From a virus, in IMG/VR virus record IMGVR_UViG_3300032053_000494, positions 1-24,538 of that record: DNA of 24,538 bases; one strand, 5' to 3'. Both the position numbers and the translations under genes were made by a program. The notes under the pieces were generated by a model. That model was given only the letters and a program-made list of their open reading frames with translations, searched no databases and had not been told where the DNA came from. Shown in pieces: positions 8,660 to 24,119 of the stretch; the first letter of the stretch is position 1, and every line of letters begins with the position of its first letter.

Positions 8660-10170
8660 TGGCACTCAAACCTGTCAGAATCCAATCCCGTCCTGGCATC
8701 AAGCGAGATGGGACAGTTCTTGAGGGCGATGTCTATATTGATGGTCAATGGGTCCGATTCAATAGAGGTCTTCCTCGGAAAATGGCCGGTTACCAAGCGG
8801 TTACGGCTACTCTACCTGAGCTAGTTCGAGGAATGACTAGTTTCTCGGCCAATTCTCTCCAGTATTTGCATCTTGGGAGTGCGACGAAGCTGGGTCAATA
8901 CATCACTAACTCAGCAGGGAATTTGTCAGCTTTCAATAATCGAACTCCAGCAGCGTTGGTCAACAGCAGTGACAACTTGTGGCAATTCGATCACTTCTAT
9001 GACTCAGTGGCCGCAGTAACTCGATTGATCGCACATGCCGCCCCTAATTTGTCAGCGATTGATTCCACGCTCAATCGAGCCATCTGGTTCGGGACTGATA
9101 CTGCGGCTGCCGTATTAACTGACACCACGTTGGCTCAAGTGAGCGGAGGCATTGTTGTTCTTGGCCCCTACCTGTTCTCTTTCGGGAATGATGGGAATAT
9201 CAACTATAGCGCTGTGAACAACCCTACTGCGGCTGGAGCTTCAGCGTTCATTACTCAGCAGAAGATTGTCAAGGGGATGGTTCTGAGAGGTAATGGCTCG
9301 GGTCCAGCAGGGTTGTTCTGGTCCCTAGACTCCCTAATTCGAGCCTCTTTCGTGGGGGGAGTTACTGTTTGGAACTTTGACACGATCACCTCAGAGTCGT
9401 CCATCCTGTCAAGTCAGGGAGTCATTGAGTACGATGGCATCTACTTCTGGGCTGGGGTTGATCGGTTTCTGATGTTCAACGGCGTTGTTCGTGAGATCCC
9501 GAACACCTACAATAACAACTGGTTCTTCGATGGTTTGAACATTAACTATCGCCAGAAAGTGTTCGCTTTCAAAGTTCCTCGCTGGGGTGAGATCTGGTGG
9601 TGTTACCCACGGGGTAATGCCACTGAGTGTACTCATGCGGTCATTTATAACGTCCGGGAGGGGTCTTGGTACGATACTGAGCTTCCCGATGGGGGGAGGA
9701 CCTGCGGGATTTATGCCAAGGTCTTTGAGCACCCGTTCATGACAGGACTGGTAGCCAACGCTACTCCGGCGTATACTCTATGGCTACATGAGAGTGGTAC
9801 TGATCGGATTGAGGCCTCAAGTGTTAACCCCATCCAGTCGTTCTTTAGCACGAATGAGATCTCAATGATTACTCAAGAGGAGTCAATAGACAAGTCTCTC
9901 CGGGTGGCTCGAATTGAACCAGACTTTGTTCAAGTTGGCGATATGACTGTCACGGTGGTCGGGCGCCAAAATTCTCGTGCCCCTTTTGTTGATGGACCGA
10001 CGTTTACTTTCGGTGATACTGCTCCTCTGCCTGAGGATCAAACCATTAAGCTGAAAGAGATCGCACGTCTCATGACTTTCAAATTCGAATCCAATACAGT
10101 GGGGGGAAACTACGAGATGGGAGAATCCCTAGCCCATATCGAACCAGCAGATGGAAGGATTCAGTCATGA
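8659..10170 (+). CDS. Tail nozzle-like protein (P22 gp10/SU10-type)
   Basis: The start is ATG 8659, overlapping the previous TAA, giving 503 residues; an upstream TTG at 8632 lies inside the previous gene and is unlikely. The N terminus (RIQSRPGIKRDGT, then GQWVRFNRGLPRKMAGYQ) matches the opening of nozzle proteins of podovirus-like tails. The body is strand-rich with repeated aromatic turns (LWQFDHFYD, LFSFGNDGNINYS, GIYFWAGVDRFLMFNG, WGEIWWCYPRGN, GSWYDTELPDGGR) consistent with a beta-propeller. The C-terminal part is a beta-sandwich-like region ending in EMGESLAHIEP. Nozzle hexamers close the lower end of the portal-adaptor channel. The Shine-Dalgarno is weak, so translation probably couples to the upstream gene. 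The assignment is by motif resemblance, not by search. Confidence 0.75.
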   Translation: MALKPVRIQSRPGIKRDGTVLEGDVYIDGQWVRFNRGLPRKMAGYQAVTATLPELVRGMTSFSANSLQYLHLGSATKLGQYITNSAGNLSAFNNRTPAALVNSSDNLWQFDHFYDSVAAVTRLIAHAAPNLSAIDSTLNRAIWFGTDTAAAVLTDTTLAQVSGGIVVLGPYLFSFGNDGNINYSAVNNPTAAGASAFITQQKIVKGMVLRGNGSGPAGLFWSLDSLIRASFVGGVTVWNFDTITSESSILSSQGVIEYDGIYFWAGVDRFLMFNGVVREIPNTYNNNWFFDGLNINYRQKVFAFKVPRWGEIWWCYPRGNATECTHAVIYNVREGSWYDTELPDGGRTCGIYAKVFEHPFMTGLVANATPAYTLWLHESGTDRIEASSVNPIQSFFSTNEISMITQEESIDKSLRVARIEPDFVQVGDMTVTVVGRQNSRAPFVDGPTFTFGDTAPLPEDQTIKLKEIARLMTFKFESNTVGGNYEMGESLAHIEPADGRIQS

Positions 10171-10391
10171 CCATTAACCCCCAGGGGATGACCGTTATCG
10201 AATGGACTGACGCGATGGCCTTCTTGCTTAATGGCTCTCCTCCCACGCAGAAGCTGTTGGATCCGACCGATTGGAAGACTTGGGGCAGGAGTCTTTTGCA
10301 GACTCTTCCTGACGGTCCGAACGTCGATGAATTTGAGGACTGGAGGGAATGGGCCATGAGACTTAACAGTACTGAAGAATTTGGGGGTTGA
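10167..10391 (+). CDS. Small conserved-looking phage protein after the nozzle gene
   Basis: This 74-residue protein starts at ATG 10167 (ATGA overlap) with GGAAGGA upstream. It is acidic and Trp-rich: VIEWTDAMAFLLN, then DPTDWKTWGRSLLQ and FEDWREWAMRLN. No membrane segment or catalytic motif is visible. Its tight position between the nozzle and the internal-protein genes suggests a virion assembly role, for example as a tail or plug component. I do not recognise a named family. Confidence 0.75.
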   Translation: MTINPQGMTVIEWTDAMAFLLNGSPPTQKLLDPTDWKTWGRSLLQTLPDGPNVDEFEDWREWAMRLNSTEEFGG

Positions 10392-10393
10392 TT

Positions 10394-13117
10394 ATGGCAA
10401 GAACTTACACTCCACCCGCAGGTGACTTACTTCGATACGGTCAAGGAGCTGAGCAACAAATGTTCTCTGATTCGAGCGAGGCTCGAACACCTGTAACTCC
10501 TGGAGGCTTCGATCTTGGTGAGATTCCTGTTACCGGGGTTTCCGGACTAGGGCCGTTAGGAAGCATGGGGGATTTTAGTCCTCCGGGCGGAATTAATGCT
10601 CCCATTACTTTCGGGGGGGATGGTCCCAGTCCAGGAGGCGGGGGAAGTCTTCTGGGAAACACTGATTTGTCTGGCGCTTGGGGAGCTGTCAAAAATGGGG
10701 CTGAGAATGTCAGTAACTTTGTTGTAGACCATCCAGGTTGGGCCGGGCTCATAGGGAGTGCTTTAGGAGTTCCTGCTGCTGGCCCGCTAGCCGGATTGTA
10801 TTCTTTAACTGGTGGCATTGGGGGAGGTCTTGACACAAATTCCGGCTCTGGATTTGGGATGGAGGGAGGTTGGGGTGGAGGCAATTTTGGTGGGGGCGAT
10901 TGGGGAGGGTCTAGCTTCGGGGGTTGGAGTAATCCGGGCAATTGGGCTGGTAGTGATTTCTCTCCCCAAGGCGTGACAGCAATGGCGGCGAAAGGAGGAG
11001 CGGTGAGAAGAAATTTCCAAACGGGCGGTCTCGCCCAGTTAGCTCAACAAACCGGTCAAGCGATGGGGGCTAGTCCTGAAGAGACTCAGGAAGCAGCCCA
11101 AGGACTTGAGCAGATCTTCCAAACCCCTGGTGGACCTCAGGAGCTCTTTACCTCAGCTGCTCGTGCGGGGATGAATCACGCTCGAGGAGGTCGGATCGAA
11201 TCGGGGCGTACTGTTTGCATGAGGAAGGGCGGTCCTGTTAACTATGCCACGGGGGGACTAGCCTCTGCCGCTCATCGTGTGGCAGGTAGTGGAACTGGCG
11301 ATGATTCGATTTTGGTTCACATGACCGAGGGCGAGTTCAATAACTTGAGGTCGGCCTGGGGAGAGCCTGACATTAACCCTCGAACGGGAATGCCAGAGTA
11401 CAGCTGGCTTGGTGACAAAGTAAAGAGTGGTTGGCACAGTCTGAAAGGCGGGGTTAAGAAGGTCTTCCAGAACCCCATTTTTCAAACTGTGGCTCCTATA
11501 GCTTTGGACTATTTCTTCCCCGGAGCAGGTAGGGCTCTAGGAACTTGGCTGGGGGCTTCAGCCGGTACTGCTAATGTCGTAGGGAATGCAGCCATTGGTG
11601 CCGGCATGGGAGCCCTGGCCGATGGGAAGAAAGGAGCTTTGTCAGGGGCTATCTCGGGGGGGATTAGAGGAGGTGGTGGGGCGATGGCCGGTAAAGCCCT
11701 TGGAGTCTCGGGGAAAATGGGGAACGCCCTGGGGACAGCGCTTCTTCAGGGAGCCAACTCGAGTCTACAAGGAGGTAGCTTTGCTCCTGCCGCTGTGATG
11801 GGAGGGTTGCAAGGTTATTTCCAAGCTCCCGAGGTAGCCTCCCTAACTGATTCTGCCGAGGCAGCTGCGGTTCCTCAGATCGATCCGGCTACGGGGATGG
11901 CAGTAGAGCCCATGGGTATCCAAGGGGATGCCCCCCTTAATGATCTCGATGCCAAGATTCGAGCGGGTAATCCTCGGGCTACGATGGCTAAGCCCCAACC
12001 TGGAGCGAGTTGGGGAGTGACCGCTCGAAAATATGCTTTGCCCATCATGGGAGGTTTGGCTTTGGCTAGCGCCCTGAGCGGCAGGCATCAGTCGACTGTG
12101 GGGAAACCTATTCCGAACCAACCGGGATTTGATTCGCCTCTCACTAAGCTGCCCTTTAATCGAAACTCTGAGACCCCGGCGATTGATTACTTCACCTATG
12201 GGCAAACAGCAAACCCCAACCCGGGCGAACAACAATTCTTCGGGGATAACGCCGTACCTCAACCGGGGTTGGCTCAAGGGGGGTTGCTCCAAAGCGAGCA
12301 CATGCCAGCAGTTAAGGGTCCTGGATCGGGGAGAGATGATCATATCCCCGCCAACCTGTCCGATGGTGAGTACGTGATGGATGCCGAGACAGTGGCCCTG
12401 CTGGGTGACGGATCAGGCGATGAGGGTGCTCGTAGACTGGACGAGATGCGAAAAAATCTGCGAAAACACAAGGCTCAGGGTTTATCGAAGGGGACTCACT
12501 CACCTGATGCAAAACGTCCTGAGGAATATGCCGGGATGAGGGATTACGCGAAAGGTGGGAAAGTTCGGAATGTTACGGCTCTCTTTAATAAAGAAGGCCG
12601 GATCGTGCACCCAGGCGAGAAGGTCACCGATTTCCGAGGCACGGAATGGATTGTCACTGGGCATGCACCCCCCAGGCATGAAGGCTCTACTGGTCGAGTT
12701 TGGGTTCGTCATGTTGACGACCAAGAAGGTCCAGGGAGTACGCGAGAATTCTTCCCCGGTGTCATGGATTTGGAAATCCGAAAGCCTGAGCTCAAAAAGA
12801 ATGGGGGTCGAGTGGATCTGGCGAAGGGGGGTATGATCCTCAGGGGGCCTCGCAAGAGATCGCCAGGTAGTGGCGGGGGATTTCAAGTGAGACGAATTCG
12901 AGTTGATGGGCAACCGAGTCATATTATCTCACCCGACTATACCGGGCGAAAGGAATTCCCTCGAGAAGAGGCTGAGGCTCATGCCGAGAATATGATTCGG
13001 CTAAATGACGGTGTGGACTACAAGGTCTATGGCATCGGGGGCGAACTGGCCGATACGGCCGAAGATGAACTGTTGCAAGAAATGCTGAAGCACATTACGA
13101 AAGGAGATGCAGAATGA
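10394..13117 (+). CDS. Gly-rich internal virion (ejection-type) protein with KGG motifs
   Basis: The start is taken as ATG 10394 (907 residues); TTG 10388 is an in-frame alternative. In order: a Pro/Gly-rich head; a hydrophobic glycine segment near 120-145; a Gly/Trp/Phe low-complexity stretch (153-190); AAKGGAV at 198; HARGGRI at 262 and MRKGG shortly after; a GSGTGDDSI...TEGEF motif (298-315); a glycine-zipper region (about 399-440); a second, better GPGSGRDDHIPANLSDGEYV motif (642-661); DYAKGGKV at 717; a compact beta module (GEKVTDFRGTEWIVTGH, STREFFPGVMDLEI, about 735-795); and DLAKGGMI at 808. GDD-x-IPA-x-LSDGEY motifs and glycine-zipper segments occur in phage internal and tail proteins that pass through the cell envelope. 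Ejection is inferred. Confidence 0.72.
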   Translation: MARTYTPPAGDLLRYGQGAEQQMFSDSSEARTPVTPGGFDLGEIPVTGVSGLGPLGSMGDFSPPGGINAPITFGGDGPSPGGGGSLLGNTDLSGAWGAVKNGAENVSNFVVDHPGWAGLIGSALGVPAAGPLAGLYSLTGGIGGGLDTNSGSGFGMEGGWGGGNFGGGDWGGSSFGGWSNPGNWAGSDFSPQGVTAMAAKGGAVRRNFQTGGLAQLAQQTGQAMGASPEETQEAAQGLEQIFQTPGGPQELFTSAARAGMNHARGGRIESGRTVCMRKGGPVNYATGGLASAAHRVAGSGTGDDSILVHMTEGEFNNLRSAWGEPDINPRTGMPEYSWLGDKVKSGWHSLKGGVKKVFQNPIFQTVAPIALDYFFPGAGRALGTWLGASAGTANVVGNAAIGAGMGALADGKKGALSGAISGGIRGGGGAMAGKALGVSGKMGNALGTALLQGANSSLQGGSFAPAAVMGGLQGYFQAPEVASLTDSAEAAAVPQIDPATGMAVEPMGIQGDAPLNDLDAKIRAGNPRATMAKPQPGASWGVTARKYALPIMGGLALASALSGRHQSTVGKPIPNQPGFDSPLTKLPFNRNSETPAIDYFTYGQTANPNPGEQQFFGDNAVPQPGLAQGGLLQSEHMPAVKGPGSGRDDHIPANLSDGEYVMDAETVALLGDGSGDEGARRLDEMRKNLRKHKAQGLSKGTHSPDAKRPEEYAGMRDYAKGGKVRNVTALFNKEGRIVHPGEKVTDFRGTEWIVTGHAPPRHEGSTGRVWVRHVDDQEGPGSTREFFPGVMDLEIRKPELKKNGGRVDLAKGGMILRGPRKRSPGSGGGFQVRRIRVDGQPSHIISPDYTGRKEFPREEAEAHAENMIRLNDGVDYKVYGIGGELADTAEDELLQEMLKHITKGDAE

Positions 13118-14145
13118 GCGTCCTTGATTTCTTATTCGAGGGCAAGCCACCGCAATCAGTTACCACTTATGGGACTAAGACCGACACCATTCCTCAATGG
13201 ATGTCGGACTACACTCAGGGGGTAATTGGAAAGGCCAATGCCGTAGCTGCTGAGCCCTACCAGGCCTATGGTGGGCCTCGGGTGGCTAGTTTTACTCCCG
13301 ATCAGCAAGCGGCGTTTGAGGCTACTCGGAACAATCAAGGGATAGCTAATCCTTTCATCAATGAGGCTGCTGCTGGCAATCGGCAAGCATCAGCCGTCAA
13401 CCCTTTGGCCGCTGCTTCTCCATATCTCAGTAAAGCGGGTGGTAGTTGGACAGACCCGGGTGTAGCTGACAGCTATATGAATCCCTACATCCAGAATGTT
13501 CTCAACCGGAATCAGACGCTGGCTCAACGAAATCTGACTGAGAATTTCATCCCGGGTTTGCAAGACGCCTTTACCTCAGGTGGTTCGTTCGGTGGTACGC
13601 GAATGGAGGAGATGGGTCTTCGTGGAACCCGAGATATCGCCGAAAACCTGAACGAGCAGAACTTGGCCTCATTAGCCGGAGCTTACGGGCAAGGCGCAAA
13701 TATCTACGGAGCTGACGCCTCGCGGGCGGGGAATGTCGGAACCGCAGTGGCCAATGCCTCGGGGATGGGCGCTGACATCGGGTTTAAGGGTGCGCAACAA
13801 AGTGGAGCTCTGGGAGAGTTAGCTCAGAGCACTGGTCTGAAAGACACAGCCGCACTCGAGACCATCGGGGGGGAACAGCAAGGTTTAGGTCAGAAGAGCC
13901 TAGACACAGCTTATAAAGATTTTACTCAGCAACGGGACTATCCCCGCGATACCATCGGGTGGATGAATTCCGTGGTGAAAGGGATGCCGTACTCCAAGAT
14001 CAGCAATGTCTCTGAGACGGGGCCCTCACAGACCTACCAGCCATCCCCCTTGTCGCAATTGGCCTCAGCCGGATCGGCGATCTACGGGATTAATCAGATG
14101 AGACAGAAACGGGGTGGTTTGATTCGAGGGGGGTACGCACGATGA
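13114..14145 (+). CDS. Internal virion-type protein, 343 residues
   Basis: This protein starts at ATG 13114 (ATGA overlap) behind AAGGAG. The N-terminal part has PQWMSDYTQGVIGKA, then PYQAYGGPRVASFTPDQQAA (residues about 48-67), a sequence type I associate with a phage protein family found next to ejection or tail genes. The middle is Gly/Ala-rich helical sequence: NPYIQNVLNRNQTLAQR, GSFGGTRMEEMGLRGTRDIA, and AGAYGQGANIYGADASRAGN. Near the C terminus are SPLSQLASAGSAIYGINQMR and the basic end KRGGLIRGGYAR, again a double-Gly motif of the locus type. No enzyme motif is present. By context between two large KGG proteins it is probably packaged with them. Confidence 0.72.
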   Translation: MSVLDFLFEGKPPQSVTTYGTKTDTIPQWMSDYTQGVIGKANAVAAEPYQAYGGPRVASFTPDQQAAFEATRNNQGIANPFINEAAAGNRQASAVNPLAAASPYLSKAGGSWTDPGVADSYMNPYIQNVLNRNQTLAQRNLTENFIPGLQDAFTSGGSFGGTRMEEMGLRGTRDIAENLNEQNLASLAGAYGQGANIYGADASRAGNVGTAVANASGMGADIGFKGAQQSGALGELAQSTGLKDTAALETIGGEQQGLGQKSLDTAYKDFTQQRDYPRDTIGWMNSVVKGMPYSKISNVSETGPSQTYQPSPLSQLASAGSAIYGINQMRQKRGGLIRGGYAR

Positions 14146-17084
14146 AACGAAAGAAGCAGTACCGCTTCAAGAAAGGCGGCTTGGCCATGGCCGAAGGCGG
14201 CGAGTTCGATGACCCGTCCCTTTACGATGACGAGCTGGACTCGGAGGACGAGGGGGGCTCGACTAATAACCAGCTCCTGACTCTACTGACTCAGAACATG
14301 GGGACTACTACTGAGGCAAAAACCCAGGCTCAAAAGATTCTCGATAATTACCAATCGGGGGCGACAAGCGACGAGGAAGACGAGCTTGTTAATCGGATGG
14401 AAGAATCAGCTGACACCACCAGAGCAACTCTGAAGGCCGCTCGTGAGAAGCTGATGAGTGAGAAGTACAACGATGCGGGTATGTGGTTCAAAATGGCCGG
14501 AGCCTTGGCAGCTCCCACCAAGACGGGATCCTTCTTTGAATCAGCCGGTCGAGCAGCTGACGTAGCTGGTGAGGAAGTCGGCAAGAAAGATATTTTTGAA
14601 AGAGCCCGGGATAAAGAAGTCCTGGGGTATGACACCGCTGCTGATGCCATCGACCAAGGGACCATTTCTAACCGTCTGAAGTTACTCCAAGCCCGTCAGT
14701 TGAGCGAAGCAGCTCTAGCTCGGTCAGCCTTGGGTGTTTTAGGTAAGCCGACCGCAAATGCCAGCTTGGCGAGAACAGATCCTCGATTCCATGGGGCCCA
14801 AGCCCTTGATGCGATCTATCTCAAGGACTATCTCCCCTTTATTAGTGGCGGATCTGCCAAGGCAACTAAGGCCCTATACGAGCTGGGTTTGGCTGAGCGC
14901 GAACTCCAATCAGGCAATGATAAAATTACCGGTCCCATAGTCGGGACAATTCGATCGGTCTCGGTACCTTACATGGGCGAGGTTGGCGATGCCGTGGCTG
15001 ATGTTCTCTGGCCCACTGGAGGAAACGTCAAAGCTATGGTGGAGGGTAACATCCTCGAATCATTGCGTCAAGTTTTAGGTAGCCAGTTTACCGAGAACGA
15101 GGGCAAGCGGATCTTGGCCAACACTTACAACCCACGTCTGGATGAGAAAATTGTGGCTAAACGAGTTACAGCCCTAAGGCTCTCACTCGAAGAAGCCCTG
15201 AAAGACAAAAATCGAATGGCCACCTATTACCAGACCCATGGTACTCTGGCGGGTTATCCAATCAAGCAGCATCACATCGAGGATTTCGGCCATTATGATG
15301 ATGGCCAGCCCAATGATGCCAAGGGAGAGGATTATAAACTTGATCCTCAGGTTGAGTTTGACACCTATATAATGCCTAGTGGCGATAGGTTTCAGGCTCC
15401 TAAGGGGGCTACCAAAACCAAAATTCTCGAGTACTATCGCCAGTTGCATCCCGAGAAGAATATGGGAAAGGATGGGAGAGAGATTCCCCAGGGTCATTTC
15501 AAAGGGGGTCGAATTAGGTCTACTCGTCAAGGTATCGCTAATTTTGCCGAAGGGGGTCCAGTTTATTTCTCAGAGGCTCCTGACGAGGAACCTGAAGGTC
15601 CTTCTATGCTCGAACAATTTAAACAACAATTAGATCCGGGGGATATCGTTACTGCTCCTTTCGGGGCTGGAGCTGGTTCTCTGATCGGATTAGGGGCTGT
15701 GGGGTTGGGCACTCGCCTTGAAGAAATGCTCCACCCCGAGCGGAAAATAAGCCCCGGTGAGAAAACTTACCTCAAGGCTCTTCGAGTTGGGAATGAGGAT
15801 CTCTCTGAGACTGGACTAAAAATTAAAAGAGCCCGAAAACAGGGAGTGCCTGCCACTTTAATGGACGCCGGAAGTCCAGCAACTCGAGCCCTGGCTGAGC
15901 GTGCTTTAATTCAAGGCGGTGCACGAGCAGAGCAGGCTATTGATGAGATCGAAAGTACTCGCAACAATTCGCGTGATCGTGTAGCTGCACGAGTAGATGC
16001 TTCTTTGAAGCCTCTGCCCTACTTTGACAGTCAAAGAAAGCTAACGGATGCCCTCTACAGCAACTCCAAACCTCTCTATGCCGCAGCCTACAGCAAGTAT
16101 CCCGGAATTGCTGAATCGGCAGTACCGGCTTTCAAAAAGATTTTTGATTCACCCGATGGCCGGAGAGCCGTTAAAGTCGGACTGAGACTTTTGCGAAATC
16201 AAGGCAAGACGATAGGGAAGGTTGACGCAGTGGGGATGGTCAATAAACCATCGCTTGAATTCCTTGACTATGTCAAACGCGGGTTCGATCAGATTATCTC
16301 GAAAGAGGAAAAGAATGGACCGACGGCTCTGGGTCGATCCCAGCGGCAATTGCGTAATCAACTGAGGGATCAGCTGGACCTTGTGTCTCCCGAATACACT
16401 CAAGCTCGGGCACAATACGCAGGTGATCTTGAGGTGCTTGACGCTCTAAAAAGTGGGCGAGAGGAATTCCACACTCTACAACCTGATGAAATTTCCACTC
16501 AATTGGCTGGAATGTCTACGGCTGAGAAACAAGCCCACCGGACAGGCGTGGCTCAGCATCTCTTCGAGTTAATTCACGGCCCCTATACTGACATGAATGC
16601 CGCTCGGAGAATTATAGGATCTCCGGCGATGGTGCAACGACTCAATCTTCTTTTCCCGAAACCGGCTGACGCTCGGATCTTTAATGAGGCCCTTAATCGA
16701 GAGATGAGCCTATTCGATCGACAACGCCAAATGCACCGACGGGCAGAACAAGGAAGACAGACGCGGATGGGTAGGGAGCTAGCTACTGAGGCTTCCCCCC
16801 TGAAGGAGTTCGGTGATTCAACTTTAGGCCGAGTGGTGGGAGTCTGGAACCAGCCCTCTCTAACGATGACTCCTGATCAAGCCGACGAGGTTGTTGATAT
16901 TCTCCGACGAGGAACCCCTCGAGAGGTTAATCGAACTTTGGCCCGATTCCTGCCTCTACAAGCTAGACAAATACGCCTGAGGACTCGTAGGGCTCGAGGG
17001 GCCAAGCTAGGGGCTGCCATTGGCGCTTTGGTTTCGCCCTTCATTAATGAGCCTTCTCCTACCGAAGAAGAACCTGAGGAGTAG
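14142..17084 (+). CDS. Large internal virion-type protein with two halves joined by KGG/EGG motifs
   Basis: This 980-residue protein starts at ATG 14142 (ATGA overlap). It opens with RFKKGG and AMAEGG (residues 8-20) and an acidic stretch. Residues about 50-450 are mostly helical and include GPIVGTIRSVSVPYMGEVGD (from 264), DVLWPTGGNVKAMVEG and a small YIMPSGDRFQAPKGATKTK unit. HFKGGRI (453) and NFAEGGPV (467) mark a joint. The second half has a glycine-rich hydrophobic segment (APFGAGAGSLIGLGAVGLG, about 502-520), then a long helical region (KKQGVPATLMDAGS-type sequence, DASLKPLPYFDSQRKLTDAL, SPEYTQARAQYAGDLEVLDAL) that resembles large phage and polyvalent proteins. It ends in a glycine-zipper helix (GAKLGAAIGALVSPF) and an acidic tail. 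The membrane-active segments fit ejection into the envelope; this is inference. Confidence 0.72.
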   Translation: MKRKKQYRFKKGGLAMAEGGEFDDPSLYDDELDSEDEGGSTNNQLLTLLTQNMGTTTEAKTQAQKILDNYQSGATSDEEDELVNRMEESADTTRATLKAAREKLMSEKYNDAGMWFKMAGALAAPTKTGSFFESAGRAADVAGEEVGKKDIFERARDKEVLGYDTAADAIDQGTISNRLKLLQARQLSEAALARSALGVLGKPTANASLARTDPRFHGAQALDAIYLKDYLPFISGGSAKATKALYELGLAERELQSGNDKITGPIVGTIRSVSVPYMGEVGDAVADVLWPTGGNVKAMVEGNILESLRQVLGSQFTENEGKRILANTYNPRLDEKIVAKRVTALRLSLEEALKDKNRMATYYQTHGTLAGYPIKQHHIEDFGHYDDGQPNDAKGEDYKLDPQVEFDTYIMPSGDRFQAPKGATKTKILEYYRQLHPEKNMGKDGREIPQGHFKGGRIRSTRQGIANFAEGGPVYFSEAPDEEPEGPSMLEQFKQQLDPGDIVTAPFGAGAGSLIGLGAVGLGTRLEEMLHPERKISPGEKTYLKALRVGNEDLSETGLKIKRARKQGVPATLMDAGSPATRALAERALIQGGARAEQAIDEIESTRNNSRDRVAARVDASLKPLPYFDSQRKLTDALYSNSKPLYAAAYSKYPGIAESAVPAFKKIFDSPDGRRAVKVGLRLLRNQGKTIGKVDAVGMVNKPSLEFLDYVKRGFDQIISKEEKNGPTALGRSQRQLRNQLRDQLDLVSPEYTQARAQYAGDLEVLDALKSGREEFHTLQPDEISTQLAGMSTAEKQAHRTGVAQHLFELIHGPYTDMNAARRIIGSPAMVQRLNLLFPKPADARIFNEALNREMSLFDRQRQMHRRAEQGRQTRMGRELATEASPLKEFGDSTLGRVVGVWNQPSLTMTPDQADEVVDILRRGTPREVNRTLARFLPLQARQIRLRTRRARGAKLGAAIGALVSPFINEPSPTEEEPEE

Positions 17085-17087
17085 ACC

Positions 17088-18971
17088 GTGGCTAAAGGAA
17101 AACCATTCAACCGGCTTGCCCAGTACCTACAGGCGAAAGCTCCCCAAATGGGGATGTTCTCAACTCTTGACGAGCTCGTTCAGTCAGCTCCGTTCGAACA
17201 AGCTCCTTTAGAGGAATGGAAACGCTACCTTTCCCCTGGAAAGATCTTCGAGCGAGAGGGAGTTCAGTTTCCTCTCAAGCAAGAAGAATTGGACTACTCC
17301 AATCTCGGTAAGTTGGAGCCTACTGGCGCTCTGCTCGATAAAGAGTGGTTAAGACGATATATCCATGAACAACGCCCTGAATTTCGACTCACCATAGGCT
17401 CCGCTGATACGTCACCCACGGGACAAGAAGAGAGGAAGGCGATTGATTCGATCTTGCGAGGAGAGACGTCGATGGAGTCTCTCCCTGGAACTACTCTTGA
17501 TGCTAACGGCCTTTATGAGGCGGCTAGGGATAAACTCTACTTTGAATCTCCCAAATATGGTGATTATTCTTTGGCTCCTGGTAAGGATTCCGATCCCGGT
17601 TACGAGGAGAGTATTACGCGATTACGAGACCTTGAAGGCCGCAGTCATTTCAGTCCTGATGTTATGTCATGGTCTCGCTCCTCCCGTCACAATCTATATC
17701 TACCTCCTCGGAAGGCTCGTCTTGTTGATGAGATTCAATCAGATCTCCACTCCCAAGCCGGTGAGAAAGGTTTTGAAGACCCAGAAACTGGATTGTGGTC
17801 TTCTACTGAGGACACCAGGCGCCGTGCAGGATTTTTCCACGCTAGGGATCTGGATGAAGCTAGCCGTGAATTGGCCTTTGGTCATTTGATCCCTCGACGT
17901 CTGGGCTATAAAGATCCGGAGAAAGTAGCTCAACTAGCCAAGGATCGAGCTTTGGCTACTGTCGAAAGTAATGACCGGCTGGCCGAGCGCGATCATCCAC
18001 CCTTCCCGCGTGACCCTCTTACTGGTTCTAATATGGACGAGTTTGGAGCGGAAAGGAAGCGAGCTTTAGCCTACGAGGAGGCTCAAGGTAGGTTGGAAGA
18101 TATCAGCGCACGTCTCAGTCAGGAGGAGCAAAAACCTCAAGATGCACCATTCAAAAACCCGGCCGATTACGCTAGACTTGAGCTTCGAAAACAACTGCTT
18201 AATGCAGTTAATGCTGATGAGGATTCTCTGGCTTTGGTCCGAGGTCAAGACCAGATCGACCGGTATGAAGGCGGTATGGATGACCGTCGGGCCGCAGGTA
18301 TGAGGTATATGTATGACGAGGTGTACCCCTCAGTCCTGAAAAAATTGGCCAAACAGTACGGAGCTGAAATGGAGGATGTGCCTCTCTTAGTTCGATCAGG
18401 TGAGGACCTTCGACTCACGACGATGCAAGACCATGGGTGGGAAACTGCAGACGATGTTCTCGACTCATTGGATGATTTCAACCACTCCGGCGGTCCGGAA
18501 TTCTGGCCTGAAGCGGCAGATACCTATGGGAATCTTGCCTCAGAGCTCGAGGCCAAGCTGCTTGCCTTGTTTCCTACACGAGAGCATAGGTCAAGTTATC
18601 AGCAGGGGATGTTAGAAGATCTCACAGAACTACAACGTAAGATCGATAATCATTACGTTGAAACCAGAGATGCAGCTGAGTTATATAAGGCAGATCGAGC
18701 CGAGGGTCTGCCTGAAGGAGATGCCTTGGCACAAGCTCACCAGGGGCTCACGCATGGTCTTTTGGCCGAAATTCAAAAAAGCTTCCACGCCTTATGGGAA
18801 GACTACACCACTCGCAATGCACAGGGTTGGAGAGACGATGCGGGAGAGGTTCAATTCCCGGCTATGAAACTCACTCCTGAGGTTAAAGAACGAGTTAAGA
18901 AAGCGGGAGTTCCACTTTTTAGCGTAGGTGCGGGGGCCATACTCCAACCAGACGATGATGAACCCCAAGGG
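17088..18971 (+). other. N-terminal polyvalent-protein-type EIQSD domain region of the giant protein
   Basis: Residues 1-628 before the first linker. The start (MFSTLDELVQSAP, LEEWKRYLSPGK, GVQFPLKQEELDYSNLGKL) matches the opening seen in phage polyvalent proteins: a Trp-containing helix followed by a gvk-x-EEL-like strand. HFSPDVMSWSRSS leads to DEIQSDLHSQ (E215-I-Q-S-D219), then PFKNPADYARLELRKQLLNA (from 354), GQDQ (386-389), and GMRYMYDEVYPSVLKKLAKQYG (from 404). That order of motifs is characteristic of the domain. The biochemical activity is not known to me. The linker between EIQSD and PFKN (about 225-350) is charged and helical. Confidence 0.7.
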
Positions 18972-21900
18972 CATGCGAAGGGAGGTTTGATTAGTGACCT
19001 CCTGTATGAGATCGTAGATCGACACACGGGTGAAGTAGTCAGTCAGCCCTATCGGAATAAAAAGCGAGCACGAACTCGTGCCGATAAACTCGACAACGAC
19101 TATGGCGCTTATCGGTACCAAGTTCGCGAGAAGAAACCAGTTGTAACCCCTGACGCTAGTCAAGATACTGGCCTCGAGGAGCTGCGTCAGGACTACGCGA
19201 AAGGTGGACGTGTCTACAATAGCGATGCTCGGAATGAAAGGGCCCGACTATTCGGTCGGCCAAAAGCCCCAAGCCCCGATGAGGCAGTCCAACGCTTAGT
19301 AGATCTAGGTGATTCACAACGAGGCAGTCCTGAGCAGGCGATGCTAGATGTCCAAAAGATATACGGGGGAGGAGTTCTCAGTCCGGTGGTGGAGCATACT
19401 GGAGATCTCATCCACCGAATGTCGCATCATGCGAATTATGGGAGTGCCTACCCCGGATTAGTTCGAGACAAAGTCGAGAAAGTTTTGGATGCTCTGAACT
19501 ACCCCTACGGCTTTCAGCGTGAGATGGGGGAGAACATTGAGCGTAATGCTCGCTACTTTGGCGATAACGAGCCCGGGTCTCGGAAGGAAGCAGTTGACCA
19601 ATCTCTGACTAACTACGCCGATGAGCATCGAAAACTGCCAGCCTACAATCGGCCTCAGTACTTCGCTCGAGAGGCAGCCGTGGCTGTGGGCGAACAACGC
19701 TGGAATGACGCAACCCGACACTTGCAATCCCTGCAGAAGTTACTTGACCTGGGTGATGATGAATTCGAACGGCTGGCTCTCAAAATTGTCCAAGTCCCCA
19801 AAGGCTACGCTAAGGGCGGCAAGATCAAAAGTCTGGGGCATGAAATCGAGAGGGGACTTAATGTTGAGCATCCCGAAGTCGCTCGGTCCTTGTACAGATA
19901 TACTCATCATGGGGATGAGCGAGGACTTCAGAGAGCTTTTAGCTCTGATCAATATGGCGAGTACCAAGATAACCTACACCGACTGCTCCGAATTAACTTT
20001 CCTTCTGGAAAAATACCTGTCACTCATGTGTTCGATTATGCTGGATATCCAACTGGCGGTCCCTACATGTCAGTCTCGACCCACCCTCATTTCGGGGACT
20101 CCTCTGAAGCTCGGGGAAGTGAGGTCAGACGATTTGAGGTTCCGATCGAGGATGTTCTTGCGGCCGGAAATAGAGAGGAGGGGGAATTGATCATTCCCAT
20201 GCCTGAGGATCTGAAAGACGAGGGATATGCGAAGGGAGGGCGCATAAAGGGAGGTCCCCCGGCGAAACCAGCACCGTTGGGGAAGTGCTTCGAGAATAGT
20301 GTTCGTTATATTTGGGCACACCCCGACGAGGACTTGGTCTTGGTTCATGGAACGGTTCAGGGTACCGGTGGCAACGCTGAGGGAAAGCGATATGGCCATG
20401 CCTGGGTTGAGCGCCGAGGCGACTCCCAAGTTCATTTCGAGCATGAACTTCCGCCGGAGCAAAAGGAACGCTTCTCTCGAACGGCGATTGACGTAACAAC
20501 TGATGAGCGATTAAAGAATCCACTAGAGGTTCCTTCAGTCCTGTATCGTGGCGTAGGTCAAGCGAGAGACGTTATGGAATACGACAAAAAGAAAATGAAC
20601 AAACTTTTGAAGTACTCCAAGCATTTCGGGCCTTGGGAATTGCCAGACATGCCCGATGAGTCAGGATATGCTGAAGGCGGTTTAGTCGAACCTGATGAAG
20701 GCCACCGCCTGATCGACCGAGCCAACTTAGGCTTCCAAGAACAATGGAAAACTCTTAACCCTGAGACTGACGAGGCTGAGTGGGGCACCAGGCCGGGGAT
20801 CATAGATGAGACTCTTTCATTGCCTGCCTTTTTAGGTGAGCTGGGAGTTCCGGCCATCCAAAGGCATATATTGCCACCTTTACTTGGTGAGCAACAACCT
20901 CGCCCTGGTGAAGAATGGAAAGCTCCTAACTGGTCACACAAGGCACTCGATCGAGCGATGTCGTTGGAGGAGGCTCTTCGAAAGGAACACAATCTTGCTC
21001 CGCCTCGTGGATTTCTCGAGAATGCGGCTGAAGCAGCAGGAACTATGCTAGGTCAATTGCCAACACCGTGGTCTCGACTAAAATCAGTCGGGCCTTTGGC
21101 CAAGGCCATGAAGAAGATCGCTGGATCTCCCCTCGAGTGGTTCTCACCCACGATCGATCCGAAATTGGCCAACTATGCTGTGGGAACTGGTTTTGGCGGT
21201 GGCTTAGGAACCTTACTTCAGGGACCTGAGGAATCAGACCAGGAGGAGGACGGGCCGAGCGATGCCGAAATAGAACAACTCCTGAACAGGATGTTACTCG
21301 AGCACATGACGAAAGAGGCCATCCATCCCCGAAGACACATACGATCGCCTTTACTTGATGAGCGTGATTATGCCAAAGGAGGGAAGGTAAGTAATATCGG
21401 GGACGCTCTGTACAAGAAGCTTCAAGATCTAGGTGTTTTTGAGGATACCGACCCCGCTGATTGGGAAGATCTGAAGAACGACGATGGCAGTTGGAATCTT
21501 GCTGAGCTTCGAAGCGAACTAGACAATGCTCTCGAGATGCGAGAGGAGATGGACGATTACCTTGACACTGTTGGAATCGATGACTCCATGTCAGGGGATG
21601 AGATAGCTGATAAAGTCAGGGACAAAGTCGTTGACCCTCTTCAGGGTGGTACTCCTACCGATTTACAACGACTGCTGGATGGGCTGAGGGCTGATACTGC
21701 TGATCTGGCCCGTATGCGAACTGAGCAAGATGCCTCAGCTCCGGACTGGCATAAACCAGAACCTCCCGCGAAACTACCCTTACCGTCTGATGTAGAACAA
21801 CTCAAGAGAATGTGGAATCAATCGCATACAGATTGGTGGAACAAAAAACAAACCTGGGAGGAGCACAAAGAGCGTGCCGATCCCATCATGGAGAAAATGG

Positions 21901-24119
21901 TTCGAACTAAACAACAGATTCGGAGAGAGGCAGGGAGGGGAGTTAACAAGCCCATTTTCAAGAAGATGATGGAGATTCCTCATGGCACCAAGGTTACCGC
22001 TGTTCACGGATTGAAATACCCCAAGCCGACTATCGGAACAGTAACTGGGACTAAGACTATCCAGTTAGATGACGGGATTTTCAACTTACCTCGCGTTGAT
22101 TTTGGTGATGGTAAGCCTAGAACGGTATTCCCAGGTGACATTCATGAAGTGTACCTACCTCACGATTTTGCGAAGGGAGGCAAGGTGTCAGGTATAGCAG
22201 ATAAATTAGTTCAAGAACTTCGAGACATGGGGGTCCATCTCGAGCGTGAGATTTATCATGACCTCAAGAACTCTGATGGTTCATGGAATCTTCAAGCTCT
22301 TCGGAAAGAGCTTAAAGAACAGAAAGAAGCGGACGATGAAATGTACGCTGAGGATGAAGAGTTAGGGCTAAATGACTTAGACCCCGATGCAGCCCACGAA
22401 GAACTTCTTAGGCTTTTGAAAGACCAAGGCGGGCGTGGGACAGGGGCATTTCACAACTGGATTTCTCATGGAGAACCGCTAACCCATGATGATCTGTACG
22501 AGGGTTTGGTAGTTGATGCTGATGATGAGCCTATCAAACGACTGATCCAAATGGATCCGAATAGCCCGCACTCAAAAGCGCTACAGGAATATATTGATCA
22601 GGGATACCCCGAGGAAGCCGATCTTTCTTCGATCCAGGACCATGTCTTTAATCTGTACGGTCAGGTGATGAAAAAATTCGACGAGGGGTATGACCCGACA
22701 CCGTTGCAGTCACAAGATCAAAGCGGGCATAGGACTGTAGTGGAACAGATTCTCGGAGGAACGCCAACTGATCTGTCGAAGTTCGATACAGACCGCCCGT
22801 TCCAGCGCCCACCTCTGACGGAGGTGCCGAACAATGAACCGATTGATCTCAACTCTCGGCTCAGGCAGCTTCAGAAAAAATTCGAGAAACACCAAGCTGA
22901 TGAAGTTCAGGATCCCGAAGCGATGGATGACGAACGCTGGGATCAACAACATCGTGGGGACGATGACCTTGATAGTCCGGCGGGCATCTCTCCCGAGGAT
23001 GAGGCAGGTCAGATGGCTTTGTATCAAGAATACGAAGATCTCACTGAGGAATTTCTCGAGGACGCGGGTTCGATGGACCCCGATCGACTTAGTCAATATA
23101 AAGAACTCCTTGATGACATGCATAGTCAGATTACTGAGGGTGGATTGATCGCTCCTGGAGACGATCACACGGCTGAGTACATGCGTCAGATGCGAAAGCA
23201 TGGAAGGCCTGATCCATTCGAGCCCCCACAGATGGCTCCAAAAGAACCTCCAGACGATTTTGCGAAGGGAGGCAAGATCGTGAAACGATCTTCCATCAAC
23301 TTTGTAACTGATGACCTCCAGGCGAAGGGGATGACCCCGAACCAATATGACGCCATCCATAACCCGGCCTATCGGCAAAGTAAAAACGTAGACGCTGAAG
23401 TCGTCCACATGTCTCCCCGGGAGTACATCGAGAAAGCGGCTGAGGTTCTGTCGAAAGCTGAGGGACGGTCGGTAACGTCTCAAGATCTGGTCGAGGAGAG
23501 AATGGCTAACCAGGAGTACCTTCAAAAGATGATTGATGAGATGGAAAAAGGGACTCCATTTGCCACTCCCTATCTCAACTACCAGACCGAATCGCAAGAG
23601 GGGATCCATCGGTCTTTGGCTGCTGAGGCTCTCGGTGCTAAAACTGTCCCTGTAGTCGTGATCAAACCTAATGCCCGAAGCGTACGGGACCGTCAAGCCA
23701 AAGACTTCCATGAATGGGCCAAGACGCAAGAACTTCCTCCGGGATTCGATCGCGAGACGTTAGAGATGTACAGTTTGAATAACGCCTCAGACGTTAGTCC
23801 TGAGCAAGTTAACGAGGTAGCTCAGTCAACCTGGCGGATGTACCTAGACGATCTCGATTTCGCTCGAGAGTCTGGGATACTTTCCGAAGACTACGCGAAA
23901 GGTGGGAAAATCACCTCAGCAGCGAAGACTCTCTCTGAGCTCAGTTATGGCGAGTTGTGGAAGGAACTTGAGAGAGCTGTGGGAGCGAAAGAAGGTCAAG
24001 GCCTGATTGAGGCCGAACTGAAGGATCGTGAAACAGGAGAGAGTTACCGTGAGCAAATTCGTCGGATGAAGGCAGCCGAGGGAATGGCGCTTGATCGATC
24101 TGTTCAAGGAGAAGAGTAA
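17088..24119 (+). CDS. Giant modular polyvalent-type protein with repeated AKGG linkers
   Basis: GTG 17088 behind GAGGAG gives 2343 residues. An N-terminal ~630-residue region carries the EIQSD-type domain. After it, nine copies of [YFH]A[KE]GG[KRL][IV] at A630, A704, A908, A1048, A1195, A1429, A1695, A2059 and A2270 divide the rest into modules of about 74, 204, 140, 147, 234, 266, 364, 211 and 74 residues. The modules are a small YGAYRY unit, a helical unit, an S-T/E-x-E unit, a papain-like unit, a membrane-active helical unit, two paralogous acidic units, a ParB-like unit and a short helical tail. Polyvalent proteins of this build are thought to be carried in the virion and injected to act early in infection; here that is inferred from composition and from position beside the ejection-type genes. 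The reading frame has no break. Confidence 0.85.
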   Translation: MAKGKPFNRLAQYLQAKAPQMGMFSTLDELVQSAPFEQAPLEEWKRYLSPGKIFEREGVQFPLKQEELDYSNLGKLEPTGALLDKEWLRRYIHEQRPEFRLTIGSADTSPTGQEERKAIDSILRGETSMESLPGTTLDANGLYEAARDKLYFESPKYGDYSLAPGKDSDPGYEESITRLRDLEGRSHFSPDVMSWSRSSRHNLYLPPRKARLVDEIQSDLHSQAGEKGFEDPETGLWSSTEDTRRRAGFFHARDLDEASRELAFGHLIPRRLGYKDPEKVAQLAKDRALATVESNDRLAERDHPPFPRDPLTGSNMDEFGAERKRALAYEEAQGRLEDISARLSQEEQKPQDAPFKNPADYARLELRKQLLNAVNADEDSLALVRGQDQIDRYEGGMDDRRAAGMRYMYDEVYPSVLKKLAKQYGAEMEDVPLLVRSGEDLRLTTMQDHGWETADDVLDSLDDFNHSGGPEFWPEAADTYGNLASELEAKLLALFPTREHRSSYQQGMLEDLTELQRKIDNHYVETRDAAELYKADRAEGLPEGDALAQAHQGLTHGLLAEIQKSFHALWEDYTTRNAQGWRDDAGEVQFPAMKLTPEVKERVKKAGVPLFSVGAGAILQPDDDEPQGHAKGGLISDLLYEIVDRHTGEVVSQPYRNKKRARTRADKLDNDYGAYRYQVREKKPVVTPDASQDTGLEELRQDYAKGGRVYNSDARNERARLFGRPKAPSPDEAVQRLVDLGDSQRGSPEQAMLDVQKIYGGGVLSPVVEHTGDLIHRMSHHANYGSAYPGLVRDKVEKVLDALNYPYGFQREMGENIERNARYFGDNEPGSRKEAVDQSLTNYADEHRKLPAYNRPQYFAREAAVAVGEQRWNDATRHLQSLQKLLDLGDDEFERLALKIVQVPKGYAKGGKIKSLGHEIERGLNVEHPEVARSLYRYTHHGDERGLQRAFSSDQYGEYQDNLHRLLRINFPSGKIPVTHVFDYAGYPTGGPYMSVSTHPHFGDSSEARGSEVRRFEVPIEDVLAAGNREEGELIIPMPEDLKDEGYAKGGRIKGGPPAKPAPLGKCFENSVRYIWAHPDEDLVLVHGTVQGTGGNAEGKRYGHAWVERRGDSQVHFEHELPPEQKERFSRTAIDVTTDERLKNPLEVPSVLYRGVGQARDVMEYDKKKMNKLLKYSKHFGPWELPDMPDESGYAEGGLVEPDEGHRLIDRANLGFQEQWKTLNPETDEAEWGTRPGIIDETLSLPAFLGELGVPAIQRHILPPLLGEQQPRPGEEWKAPNWSHKALDRAMSLEEALRKEHNLAPPRGFLENAAEAAGTMLGQLPTPWSRLKSVGPLAKAMKKIAGSPLEWFSPTIDPKLANYAVGTGFGGGLGTLLQGPEESDQEEDGPSDAEIEQLLNRMLLEHMTKEAIHPRRHIRSPLLDERDYAKGGKVSNIGDALYKKLQDLGVFEDTDPADWEDLKNDDGSWNLAELRSELDNALEMREEMDDYLDTVGIDDSMSGDEIADKVRDKVVDPLQGGTPTDLQRLLDGLRADTADLARMRTEQDASAPDWHKPEPPAKLPLPSDVEQLKRMWNQSHTDWWNKKQTWEEHKERADPIMEKMVRTKQQIRREAGRGVNKPIFKKMMEIPHGTKVTAVHGLKYPKPTIGTVTGTKTIQLDDGIFNLPRVDFGDGKPRTVFPGDIHEVYLPHDFAKGGKVSGIADKLVQELRDMGVHLEREIYHDLKNSDGSWNLQALRKELKEQKEADDEMYAEDEELGLNDLDPDAAHEELLRLLKDQGGRGTGAFHNWISHGEPLTHDDLYEGLVVDADDEPIKRLIQMDPNSPHSKALQEYIDQGYPEEADLSSIQDHVFNLYGQVMKKFDEGYDPTPLQSQDQSGHRTVVEQILGGTPTDLSKFDTDRPFQRPPLTEVPNNEPIDLNSRLRQLQKKFEKHQADEVQDPEAMDDERWDQQHRGDDDLDSPAGISPEDEAGQMALYQEYEDLTEEFLEDAGSMDPDRLSQYKELLDDMHSQITEGGLIAPGDDHTAEYMRQMRKHGRPDPFEPPQMAPKEPPDDFAKGGKIVKRSSINFVTDDLQAKGMTPNQYDAIHNPAYRQSKNVDAEVVHMSPREYIEKAAEVLSKAEGRSVTSQDLVEERMANQEYLQKMIDEMEKGTPFATPYLNYQTESQEGIHRSLAAEALGAKTVPVVVIKPNARSVRDRQAKDFHEWAKTQELPPGFDRETLEMYSLNNASDVSPEQVNEVAQSTWRMYLDDLDFARESGILSEDYAKGGKITSAAKTLSELSYGELWKELERAVGAKEGQGLIEAELKDRETGESYREQIRRMKAAEGMALDRSVQGEE
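18975..19196 (+). other. Small YGAYRY module between linkers 1 and 2
   Basis: Residues 630-703. After AKGGLI comes one short unit: YEIVDRHTGEVVSQPYRNKK followed by a basic helix (RARTRADKLDNDY) and GAYRYQVREK, then a flexible acidic tail up to the next linker. The pattern is a beta hairpin plus a helix, and it recalls small repeated modules in other phage proteins. The function is unknown. Confidence 0.5.
19809..20228 (+). other. Module with S-T-S/E-x-E pattern, possible ADP-ribosyltransferase-like fold
   Basis: Residues 908-1047. PYMSVSTHPHFG (from P992, with S995, S997, T998) is followed by FEVPIEDVLAAGNREEGELIIP with E1031-x-E1033. This spacing and the terminal E-x-E before a hydrophobic strand resemble the second and third motifs of Arg-Ser-Glu-type ADP-ribosyltransferases. 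The first motif is not clear: where a YRG-like Arg strand would be expected I read PVTHVFDYAG. The module may be a degenerate transferase or an unrelated fold. The E-x-E loop alone is weak evidence. Confidence 0.3.
20229..20669 (+). other. Papain/NlpC-like cysteine-peptidase-type module of the giant protein
   Basis: Residues 1048-1194. After the linker, GKCFENSVRYIW places C1067 at the start of a helix, followed by LVLVHGTVQGTGG (H1087). KRYGHAWVE gives H1104 in a strand, and RTAIDVT gives D1135. A Cys at a helix N terminus, then a His strand, then an Asp/Asn strand is the order of papain-like and NlpC/P60-like enzymes. The HAWVE plus D arrangement also resembles transglutaminase-like domains. 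The C-terminal part has VLYRGVGQARDVMEYDKKKM. Activity and substrate (peptidoglycan, a host protein or the phage protein itself) are unknown. Confidence 0.5.
20670..21371 (+). other. Helical, potentially membrane-active module
   Basis: Residues 1195-1428. A charged start (AEGGLVEPDEGHRLIDRANL) leads to LSLPAFLGELGVPAIQRHIL and then FLENAAEAAGTMLGQLPTPW. The latter is an amphipathic, small-residue-rich helix of the kind seen in ejection proteins. A glycine-rich stretch follows (YAVGTGFGGGLGTLLQG) and then an acidic helix. Membrane contact is possible. No catalytic motif is visible. Confidence 0.4.
21372..23261 (+). repeat. Two adjacent paralogous acidic modules
   Basis: Residues 1429-1694 and 1695-2058 both start with the linker and the same sequence type. 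KVSNIGDALYKKLQDLGV with DLKNDDGSWNLAELRSEL in the first matches KVSGIADKLVQELRDMGV with DLKNSDGSWNLQALRKEL in the second. Both later contain GGTPTDL. The first adds a long helix and a small beta unit (GTKVTAVHGLKYPK, RVDFGDGKPRTVFPGDIHEV). The second adds a longer acidic helical region. They are best explained by internal duplication followed by divergent growth. The function is unknown. Confidence 0.7.
22162..22184 (+). repeat. 23-bp direct repeat at a module joint, copy 1
   Basis: This stretch encodes (D)DFAKGGK at the start of residue block 1695-2058. It is identical, base for base, to positions 23254-23276 at the end of that block, and the flanking bases differ. The two copies lie in the same frame 1092 bp apart. 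Confidence 0.85.
23254..23276 (+). repeat. 23-bp direct repeat at a module joint, copy 2
   Basis: This is an exact match to 22162-22184, starting the ParB-like module. Together the copies bracket one module of 364 residues, which is the arrangement expected if recombination at the joints can gain or lose a module in frame. Confidence 0.85.
23262..23894 (+). other. ParB-like module of the giant protein
   Basis: Residues 2059-2269. VDAEVVHMSPREYIEKAAEV is followed by ATPYLNY and then QEGIHRSLAAEALGAKTVPV (E2171-G-x-H2174-R2175). This is the E-G-x-H-R-x3-A core and the following strand of ParB/sulfiredoxin-like domains, as found in phage ParB-like proteins. Such domains in injected proteins are proposed to act on DNA or as nucleotide-dependent switches. 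The Q before EG differs from the usual G/H, and I see no HTH domain with it. The rest of the module is helical. Confidence 0.6.

What the first reader, a model, noticed from the sequence alone, without database searches (positions are those of the whole stretch)
20229..20669. Papain-like Cys-His-Asp module inside a protein full of Gly-Gly linkers: possible self-processing
C1067, H1104 and D1135 occur in the order and setting of papain/NlpC-like enzymes. Several papain-fold proteases (double-glycine leader peptidases, viral papain-like proteases) cut after Gly-Gly. The same polypeptide carries nine x-A-K-G-G sites. A phage cargo protein that is cut into modules at delivery by its own embedded protease would be a new arrangement. 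An alternative is that the domain acts on peptidoglycan or a host target and the Gly-Gly coincidence means nothing.
Basis: inference. Interest (0 to 1): 0.7.

Follow-up and report, generated by a model that had tools for sequence, protein, structure and literature searches.

The report
Phage-delivered papain/transglutaminase-fold enzyme module
A giant phage protein, probably injected into the host with the DNA, carries one module of a previously unnamed enzyme family with a cysteine-histidine-aspartate active site; it is probably a tool used on the host, and nothing found ties it to cutting the protein's own Gly-Gly linkers.

Summary
C1067, H1104 and D1135 are where stated, and the 2343-aa protein has nine linkers (eight AKGG, one AEGG). 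C1067 is its only cysteine.

The module belongs to a real virus-borne family that lacks a Pfam or NCBIfam entry: 58 distinct domains, all with a Cys, HAW and a downstream Asp. A model built on 28 sequences (pLDDT 84) shows a papain/transglutaminase-like arrangement. Its nearest solved structures are glutamine amidohydrolases and deamidases (NTAQ1 Z 6.9). C39 double-glycine peptidases come lower (Z 3.9).

The self-processing idea is not supported. Of the 58 family proteins only the window's has [YFH]A[KE]GG linkers. None of 43 other phage loci with DYAKGGK encodes the domain. Other giants carrying the domain have separate zincin motifs, one of them MPTase-PolyVal with ArdC-N.

Relatives in T4-type phages often start with a leader resembling the capsid-targeting sequence. 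The window's gene lies in an ejection-protein-like cassette syntenic with Caulobacter phage RW. Best reading: a virion-delivered module that modifies (deamidates, transamidates or cleaves) a host target. The substrate is unknown, and the third catalytic residue may be D1139 rather than D1135.

The parts
17088..24119 (+). giant multi-module ORF, 2343 aa, GTG start, one cysteine in all
20271..20648 (+). papain/transglutaminase-fold module (about residues 1062-1187)
   Evidence: profile match; model m7ae2cfec7fc7; fold comparison
20286..20288 (+). C1067, predicted nucleophile, N-terminus of the first helix; only Cys of the protein
20397..20399 (+). H1104 of HAWVE, in the second strand
20490..20492 (+). 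D1135, candidate third residue (end of predicted strand 77-80 of the model)
20502..20504 (+). D1139, rival candidate third residue (invariant Asp column of most alignments)
20223..20246 (+). GYAKGGRI linker just upstream of the module
20664..20687 (+). GYAEGGLV linker just downstream of the module (the one linker with Glu)
18969..18992 (+). GHAKGGLI linker
19191..19214 (+). DYAKGGRV linker
19803..19826 (+). GYAKGGKI linker
21366..21389 (+). DYAKGGKV linker
22164..22187 (+). DFAKGGKV linker
23256..23279 (+). DFAKGGKI linker
23889..23912 (+). DYAKGGKI linker
10388..17084 (+). upstream ejection-protein-like cassette (ORFs 10388-13117, 13114-14145, 14142-17084), syntenic with Caulobacter phage RW gp066c, gp065c, gp064c; Cys-poor (1, 0, 0 Cys); ORFs 10388-13117 and 14142-17084 carry similar Gly-Gly motifs

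Best explanation
Residues of about 1062-1187 are a module of an undescribed, virus-borne family of papain/transglutaminase-fold enzymes with a Cys-His-Asp active site. The module sits in a giant polyvalent-type protein that is probably packaged and injected with the phage DNA (inferred). After delivery it most likely modifies a host protein through thioester chemistry: Gln/Asn deamidation or transamidation, or else peptide cleavage (inferred; the substrate is unknown). The AKGG stretches are flexible joints between independently acquired modules and are not its substrate (inferred). Shown here by computation: the family, the conserved residues, the fold model, the independence of enzyme and linker, and the synteny. 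Not shown: activity, target, and presence in virions.
For: Family and residues: 58 distinct domains with Cys, HAW and a downstream Asp; a profile of the other 27 rows scores the window at 81 bits. Fold: pLDDT 84.1, pTM 0.76, Cys at a helix N-terminus, His in a strand. VIA-align rows 1-12 are NTAQ1 (Z 6.9-5.6, about 105 of 135 residues), then protein-glutaminases (5.4, 5.3), with deamidase effectors, TglA, pseudomurein endoisopeptidases and staphopain at Z 4.1-4.7. The range starts put model Cys12 on NTAQ1 residue 28, the residue replaced in entries titled C28S, if the first residues align without gaps. Sole Cys: the predicted nucleophile is the only Cys of the window protein and of four more of the 11 ORFs of 500 aa or more: 2859, 2118, 1320 and 561 aa. 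Delivery: a capsid-targeting-like leader in 14 of 29 family ORFs against 31 of 381 other ORFs of the same loci (Fisher p 1e-7); T4-type prohead protease (PF03420) in the two largest leader-bearing contigs; a relative fused to MPTase-PolyVal and ArdC-N; synteny with Caulobacter phage RW gp068c-gp064c. Linker independence.
Against: Foldseek finds no significant PDB match (best E 0.37), and VIA Z stays under 8, where the tool warns of chance similarity. The chemistry is not settled: peptidases with the same fold also score (staphopain 4.3, C39 PCAT1 3.9). The window protein itself has no capsid-targeting-like leader, no recognised companion domain and no zincin, and the record is a 24.5-kb fragment, so its delivery rests on gene order alone. 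The third catalytic residue is ambiguous. The leader motif was written after seeing the family's N-termini, so the Fisher value is optimistic; neighbouring genes in one array are not independent either.
Confidence: 0.6

Rival explanations
1. One reading: the module is a protease that cuts the giant protein after its own AKGG linkers, in the head or in the host.
For: Nine linkers, two of them flanking the module. The fold family includes Gly-Gly cutters; C39 PCAT1 appears at Z 3.9. No HExxH protease motif in the giant. One other carrier, L183, also has Gly-rich repeats around the domain.
Against: Only the window's protein among 58 family proteins has these linkers. None of 43 other DYAKGGK loci has the enzyme, and L092 has four YAKGG linkers without it. 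Similar linkers lie in neighbouring window proteins. No profile relation to C39. Nearest folds are amidohydrolases.
Confidence: 0.08
2. The module acts on the cell wall at entry, as NlpC/P60 or endoisopeptidase domains do.
For: Pseudomurein endoisopeptidases PeiW and PeiP are among the fold matches (Z 4.4, 4.3). The neighbouring Caulobacter phage RW gp063c looks as if it ends in a lytic-transglycosylase-like stretch (my reading, not searched).
Against: NlpC/P60 profile scores below its reversed control (12.2 against 15.8). T4-type relatives look like internal head proteins meant for the cytoplasm. The relatives scanned with Pfam show no wall-binding domain beside it, apart from weak sub-cut-off LysM hits in L185.
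Confidence: 0.12
3. The module is a protease that cuts host proteins rather than a deamidase or transamidase.
For: The fold family is mixed; staphopain and papain-like toxin rows at Z 4.1-4.5.
Against: Amidohydrolases and deamidases fill the top 14 VIA rows. The HAW-x-E...D register matches transglutaminase core best of the three profiles tried (21.6 against reversed 9.2).
Confidence: 0.17

Closest known systems
NTAQ1, protein N-terminal glutamine amidohydrolase (PDB 4w79, 6kgj)
   Same: best fold match, Z 6.9 over 105 residues; Cys position coincides by range offset
   Different: 11-12% identity; NTAQ1 is a human protein and acts on N-terminal Gln; substrate here unknown
Transglutaminase-like superfamily (Pfam PF01841, PF13471)
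   Same: Cys ... HAW-x-E ... D register; weak PF13471 match of the outlier L008 (E 0.049)
   Different: no Pfam match for the window; hhalign probability only about 5%
Polyvalent proteins of Iyer et al. 2017 (PMC5512222)
   Same: large multi-module phage protein; a relative, L193, joins this domain to MPTase-PolyVal and ArdC-N
   Different: their four peptidase superfamilies are zincin, assemblin-like, DD and LonC; 'papain' and 'transglutaminase' do not occur in the main text
T4 internal head proteins with a capsid targeting sequence (PMC3012670 and PMC9391042, passages seen)
   Same: similar N-terminal leader on 14 of 29 family ORFs (likeness recalled); prohead protease in the same contigs for L011 and L012
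   Different: the window protein has no such leader; T4 internal proteins of known function are not enzymes of this fold (recalled)
C39 double-glycine peptidases (PF03412)
   Same: distant common fold (PCAT1 Z 3.9)
   Different: no sequence relation; not joined to an ABC transporter

Membership tests
Papain-like / transglutaminase-like cysteine enzymes | conserved Cys, His and Asp in that order | tested here: met
   58 of 58 distinct domains have Cys before HAW and an Asp within about 60 residues after it
Papain-like / transglutaminase-like cysteine enzymes | core topology, Cys at helix N-terminus, His and Asp on strands | tested here: met
   model pLDDT 84.1; top VIA rows are of this fold, Z 6.9. 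Foldseek E only 0.37 and Z under 8, so support is moderate
Transglutaminase core (PF01841/PF13471) | sequence-profile match | tested here: inconclusive
   no Pfam hit; hhalign score 21.6 against 9.2 reversed, in register, probability about 5%
C39 double-glycine peptidase (PF03412) | sequence-profile match | tested here: not met
   no Pfam hit; hhalign 12.9-14.3 against 10.3-10.4 reversed
C39 double-glycine peptidase (PF03412) | cuts after Gly-Gly | not testable with these tools
   needs an experiment; association test negative
NlpC/P60 (PF00877) | sequence-profile match | tested here: not met
   no Pfam hit; hhalign 12.2 against 15.8 reversed
Polyvalent protein | large polypeptide of several unrelated modules | tested here: met
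   nine linkers divide 2343 aa; separate modules have relatives elsewhere, residues 740-884 in Salicola phage SCTP-2 gp47 and 640-681 as a small Pseudomonas phage protein
Polyvalent protein | known companion domains (ArdC-N, MPTase and others) | tested here: not met
   none in the window protein; met in the relative L193
Polyvalent protein | delivered with the DNA | not testable with these tools
   inferred from gene order only
T4-type internal head protein | N-terminal capsid targeting sequence | tested here: not met
   not in the window protein; a similar leader is present in T4-type relatives

The most novel reading that the evidence does not exclude
A new family of virion-delivered glutamine deamidases or transamidases that act on host proteins at entry. 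Unrelated phages carry it by two routes: as a small T4-type internal head protein with a targeting leader, and as one module of giant ejected proteins, in several of which the catalytic cysteine is the only cysteine.
Probability: 0.35. Interest if true: 0.72.

Novelty: new variant of a known kind. Interest (0 to 1): 0.5.

Why it matters
If right, phages inject a class of protein-modifying enzyme whose fold relatives include bacterial deamidase effectors, and it is not among the peptidases named in the polyvalent-protein paper passages read here. The single-cysteine pattern in several giants offers a simple handle: one residue can be removed to test the whole function. The finding also warns that Gly-Gly linkers in phage mosaics should not be read as protease sites without more evidence.

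Tried and rejected
Direct searches with the window module alone found nothing in Pfam, NCBIfam, PHROGs, named phages or viral contigs. Weak hits to crAss-like phage cr85_1 and a Manatee Spring phage were set aside as chance. A structure prediction without an alignment was poor (pLDDT 47.5) and was not used. tblastn of six relatives against named phages gave no match. In bacterial and archaeal genomes the pattern gave three matches: two are short chance frames and the third is the same 13,588-base contig as a viral record. A search for close relatives of the upstream ORF to find sister giants gave none. A PADLOC scan gave one weak hit in 28 (E 0.0027), not pursued. I first took D1135 as the aligned Asp and now leave D1135 or D1139 open. 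Paper searches for transglutaminase or deamidase in phage internal or ejection proteins, for a 'KGG motif' and for capsid-targeting cargo surveys listed nothing on this family or linker. These searches cover only the open-licence library.

Limits: viral records are mostly fragments and loci hold only part of them, so '0 of 43' means the stretches held. Of the 43 loci, 42 gave an ORF of 40 aa or more with the motif. In the profile tests I kept 25 of 30 transglutaminase, 15 of 24 C39 and 14 of 15 NlpC rows, by a motif filter, because the strand was ambiguous in some. The leader figure excludes nothing (14 of 29); without the two MPSFLRPLHE rows it is 12 of 29, and 14 of the 58 domains of the larger set, for which no background was counted. 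L004 and L008, brought in by the first pattern, are outliers (E 0.44 and 0.0028) and were left out of the family counts.

Full report
The observation. The window is a whole IMG/VR virus record of 24,538 bases. ORF 17088-24119 (+) encodes 2343 aa. There are nine [YFH]A[KE]GG linkers, eight with Lys and one with Glu, against at most two in 2000 shuffles. C1067 is the only cysteine of the protein. The two ORFs just upstream have none, and ORF 10388-13117 has one.

Finding the family. The module alone matches nothing in Pfam, NCBIfam, PHROGs or named phages. A DNA pattern for C-F-x-N ... HAW gave five stretches, of which L006 and L005/L007 are clear relatives. An alignment of these led to ten loci. 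A second pattern around HAW gave 40 viral stretches, and all 40 encode the family by profile search. The same pattern in the bacterial and archaeal genome collection gave three, of which two are chance frames and one is a contig also held as viral. A last scan gave 53 loci. Altogether 98 ORFs with 58 distinct domains, the window's among them, match at E below 1e-6. All 58 have a Cys before HAW and an Asp after it, and 56 of 58 have G-x-C near the start. HAW and nearby residues were selected by the patterns; the Cys and Asp were not in the patterns. The family is therefore real and essentially viral. One of 28 members matches phrog_6596, weakly.

Fold. A model on 28 aligned sequences has mean pLDDT 84.1 and pTM 0.76, with the Cys at the start of the first helix, the His in a strand, and D1135 at the end of the next strand. 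Foldseek alone is not significant (best PDB E 0.37); one unnamed viral protein matches at E 3.8e-5. VIA-align ranks NTAQ1 first (Z 6.9, 3.3 A, 105 residues), then protein-glutaminases (5.4, 5.3). Lower come deamidase effectors, TglA, pseudomurein endoisopeptidases, staphopain and, at 3.9, the C39 domain of PCAT1. The aligned starts imply that model Cys12 falls on NTAQ1 residue 28, the residue named in entries titled C28S; this assumes no gap in the first residues. Profile comparison favours transglutaminase core (21.6, reversed control 9.2) over C39 (12.9-14.3, reversed 10.3-10.4) and NlpC/P60 (12.2, reversed 15.8), but none is strong enough for membership. The third catalytic residue is unsettled. 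Alignment A1 pairs D1135 with the invariant Asp. A3 and three other MAFFT modes, and two profiles of the other 27 rows, place D1139 there.

Enzyme and linker are independent. Of 58 family proteins only the window's has [YFH]A[KE]GG. L176 has one LAKGG and L196 one MAEGG. In the other direction, DYAKGGK[IVM] occurs in 43 viral stretches and none holds the domain (best E 0.93). Most are short proteins with one such site, often near the C-terminus; L092 has four YAKGG between modules. In the window itself similar motifs lie in ORFs 10388-13117 and 14142-17084. Against my reading: the domain of L183 also lies between Gly-rich repeats, of a different kind, and the window giant has no HExxH motif.

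Context. Eleven domain-bearing ORFs are 500 aa or longer, and in five of them (window, L043, L193, L182, L190) the predicted nucleophile is the only Cys. L193 has MPTase-PolyVal (PF18818, E 4.9e-35) and ArdC-N (PF08401, E 2.4e-23); L183 has a topoisomerase IB domain; L043 has an RNase_T exonuclease and two HExxH motifs. L193 in particular is a polyvalent protein in the sense of Iyer et al. 2017 (PMC5512222; passages and section 8 read). That paper already proposes self-processing by zincins and names four peptidase superfamilies, none papain-like. Many small relatives begin with a leader of the form M-x-x-[FLY]-x-x-x-[ILVF]-x-E: 14 of 29 family ORFs against 31 of 381 other ORFs of the same loci, and many of the 31 lie in gene arrays next to the family member (Fisher test). 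The leader resembles the capsid targeting sequence of T4 internal proteins. That likeness is recalled; the papers seen in passages (PMC3012670, PMC9391042) describe the sequence and its role in packaging and injection but not its letters. T4-type prohead protease is present in the two largest leader-bearing contigs (L011, L012) and in L031's, 3 of 29 records searched; most of the others are fragments.

The window's own cassette. Caulobacter phage RW gp068c, gp066c, gp065c and gp064c match window ORFs 8632-10170 (51%), 10388-13117 (55% over 101 aa), 13114-14145 (36%) and 14142-17084 (30%) in the same order. RW gp063c-gp066c have no cysteine, no AKGG and no such domain. The giant thus sits at the end of an ejection-protein-like cassette. 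That these proteins are ejected is inferred.

Verdict. The best explanation is a virion-delivered papain/transglutaminase-fold enzyme that modifies a host target; deamidation or transamidation is favoured over cleavage by the fold ranking and the profile register only. Self-processing at AKGG is possible but has no support beyond coincidence of position. The family is new as far as the libraries searched show; the principle (multi-module injected phage proteins) is known.

Noticed in passing
L011:6897-10514, L012:2754-4947, L014:4918-7832, L021:175-2013, L038:476-2125: Runs of adjacent genes that each begin with nearly the same decapeptide leader (M-[IK]-x-L-x-x-[IL]-[IL]-x-E), as if a whole array of head-packaged cargo genes.
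   Followed up: partly
window 19821-20234: The module just upstream (residues 912-1049) shows an R ... STS-like ... E-x-E order that recalls ADP-ribosyltransferases; motif recalled, no library hit.
   Followed up: no
window 23274-23900: Module near the C-terminus with a weak ParB-like hit (phrog_26754, E 0.099).
   Followed up: no
window 19305-19739: Residues 740-884 are 39% identical to the C-terminal part of Salicola phage SCTP-2 gp47, whose N-terminal part has an HEMVH zincin motif.
   Followed up: partly
window 19005-19130: Residues 640-681 occur as a free-standing 51-aa protein in Pseudomonas phage phiPto-bp6g (64%).
   Followed up: partly
window 13114-17084; L175:15946-22175: Ejection-like proteins of the window and of Caulobacter phage RW (gp063c-gp066c) contain no cysteine at all.
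   Followed up: partly
L061-L103: Many short phage ORFs end in a DYAKGGKVSSAS[KR]RADG...KGKT[KR]G tail, a shared C-terminal tag of unknown role.
   Followed up: no
L183:4999-8691: Giant phage protein with repeated GGPGSGNFGHSG linkers, two HExxH motifs, this domain and a topoisomerase IB domain.
   Followed up: no
L026:2008-3795, L033:2858-3850: The domain is followed by an AAA_33 / zeta-toxin-like kinase domain (PF13671 E 1.5e-7 in L026).
   Followed up: no
L020, L024, L030, L036: The domain is followed by a conserved FTKHFWERINGSRG-type C-terminal region without Pfam match in the two scanned, L024 and L030.
   Followed up: no
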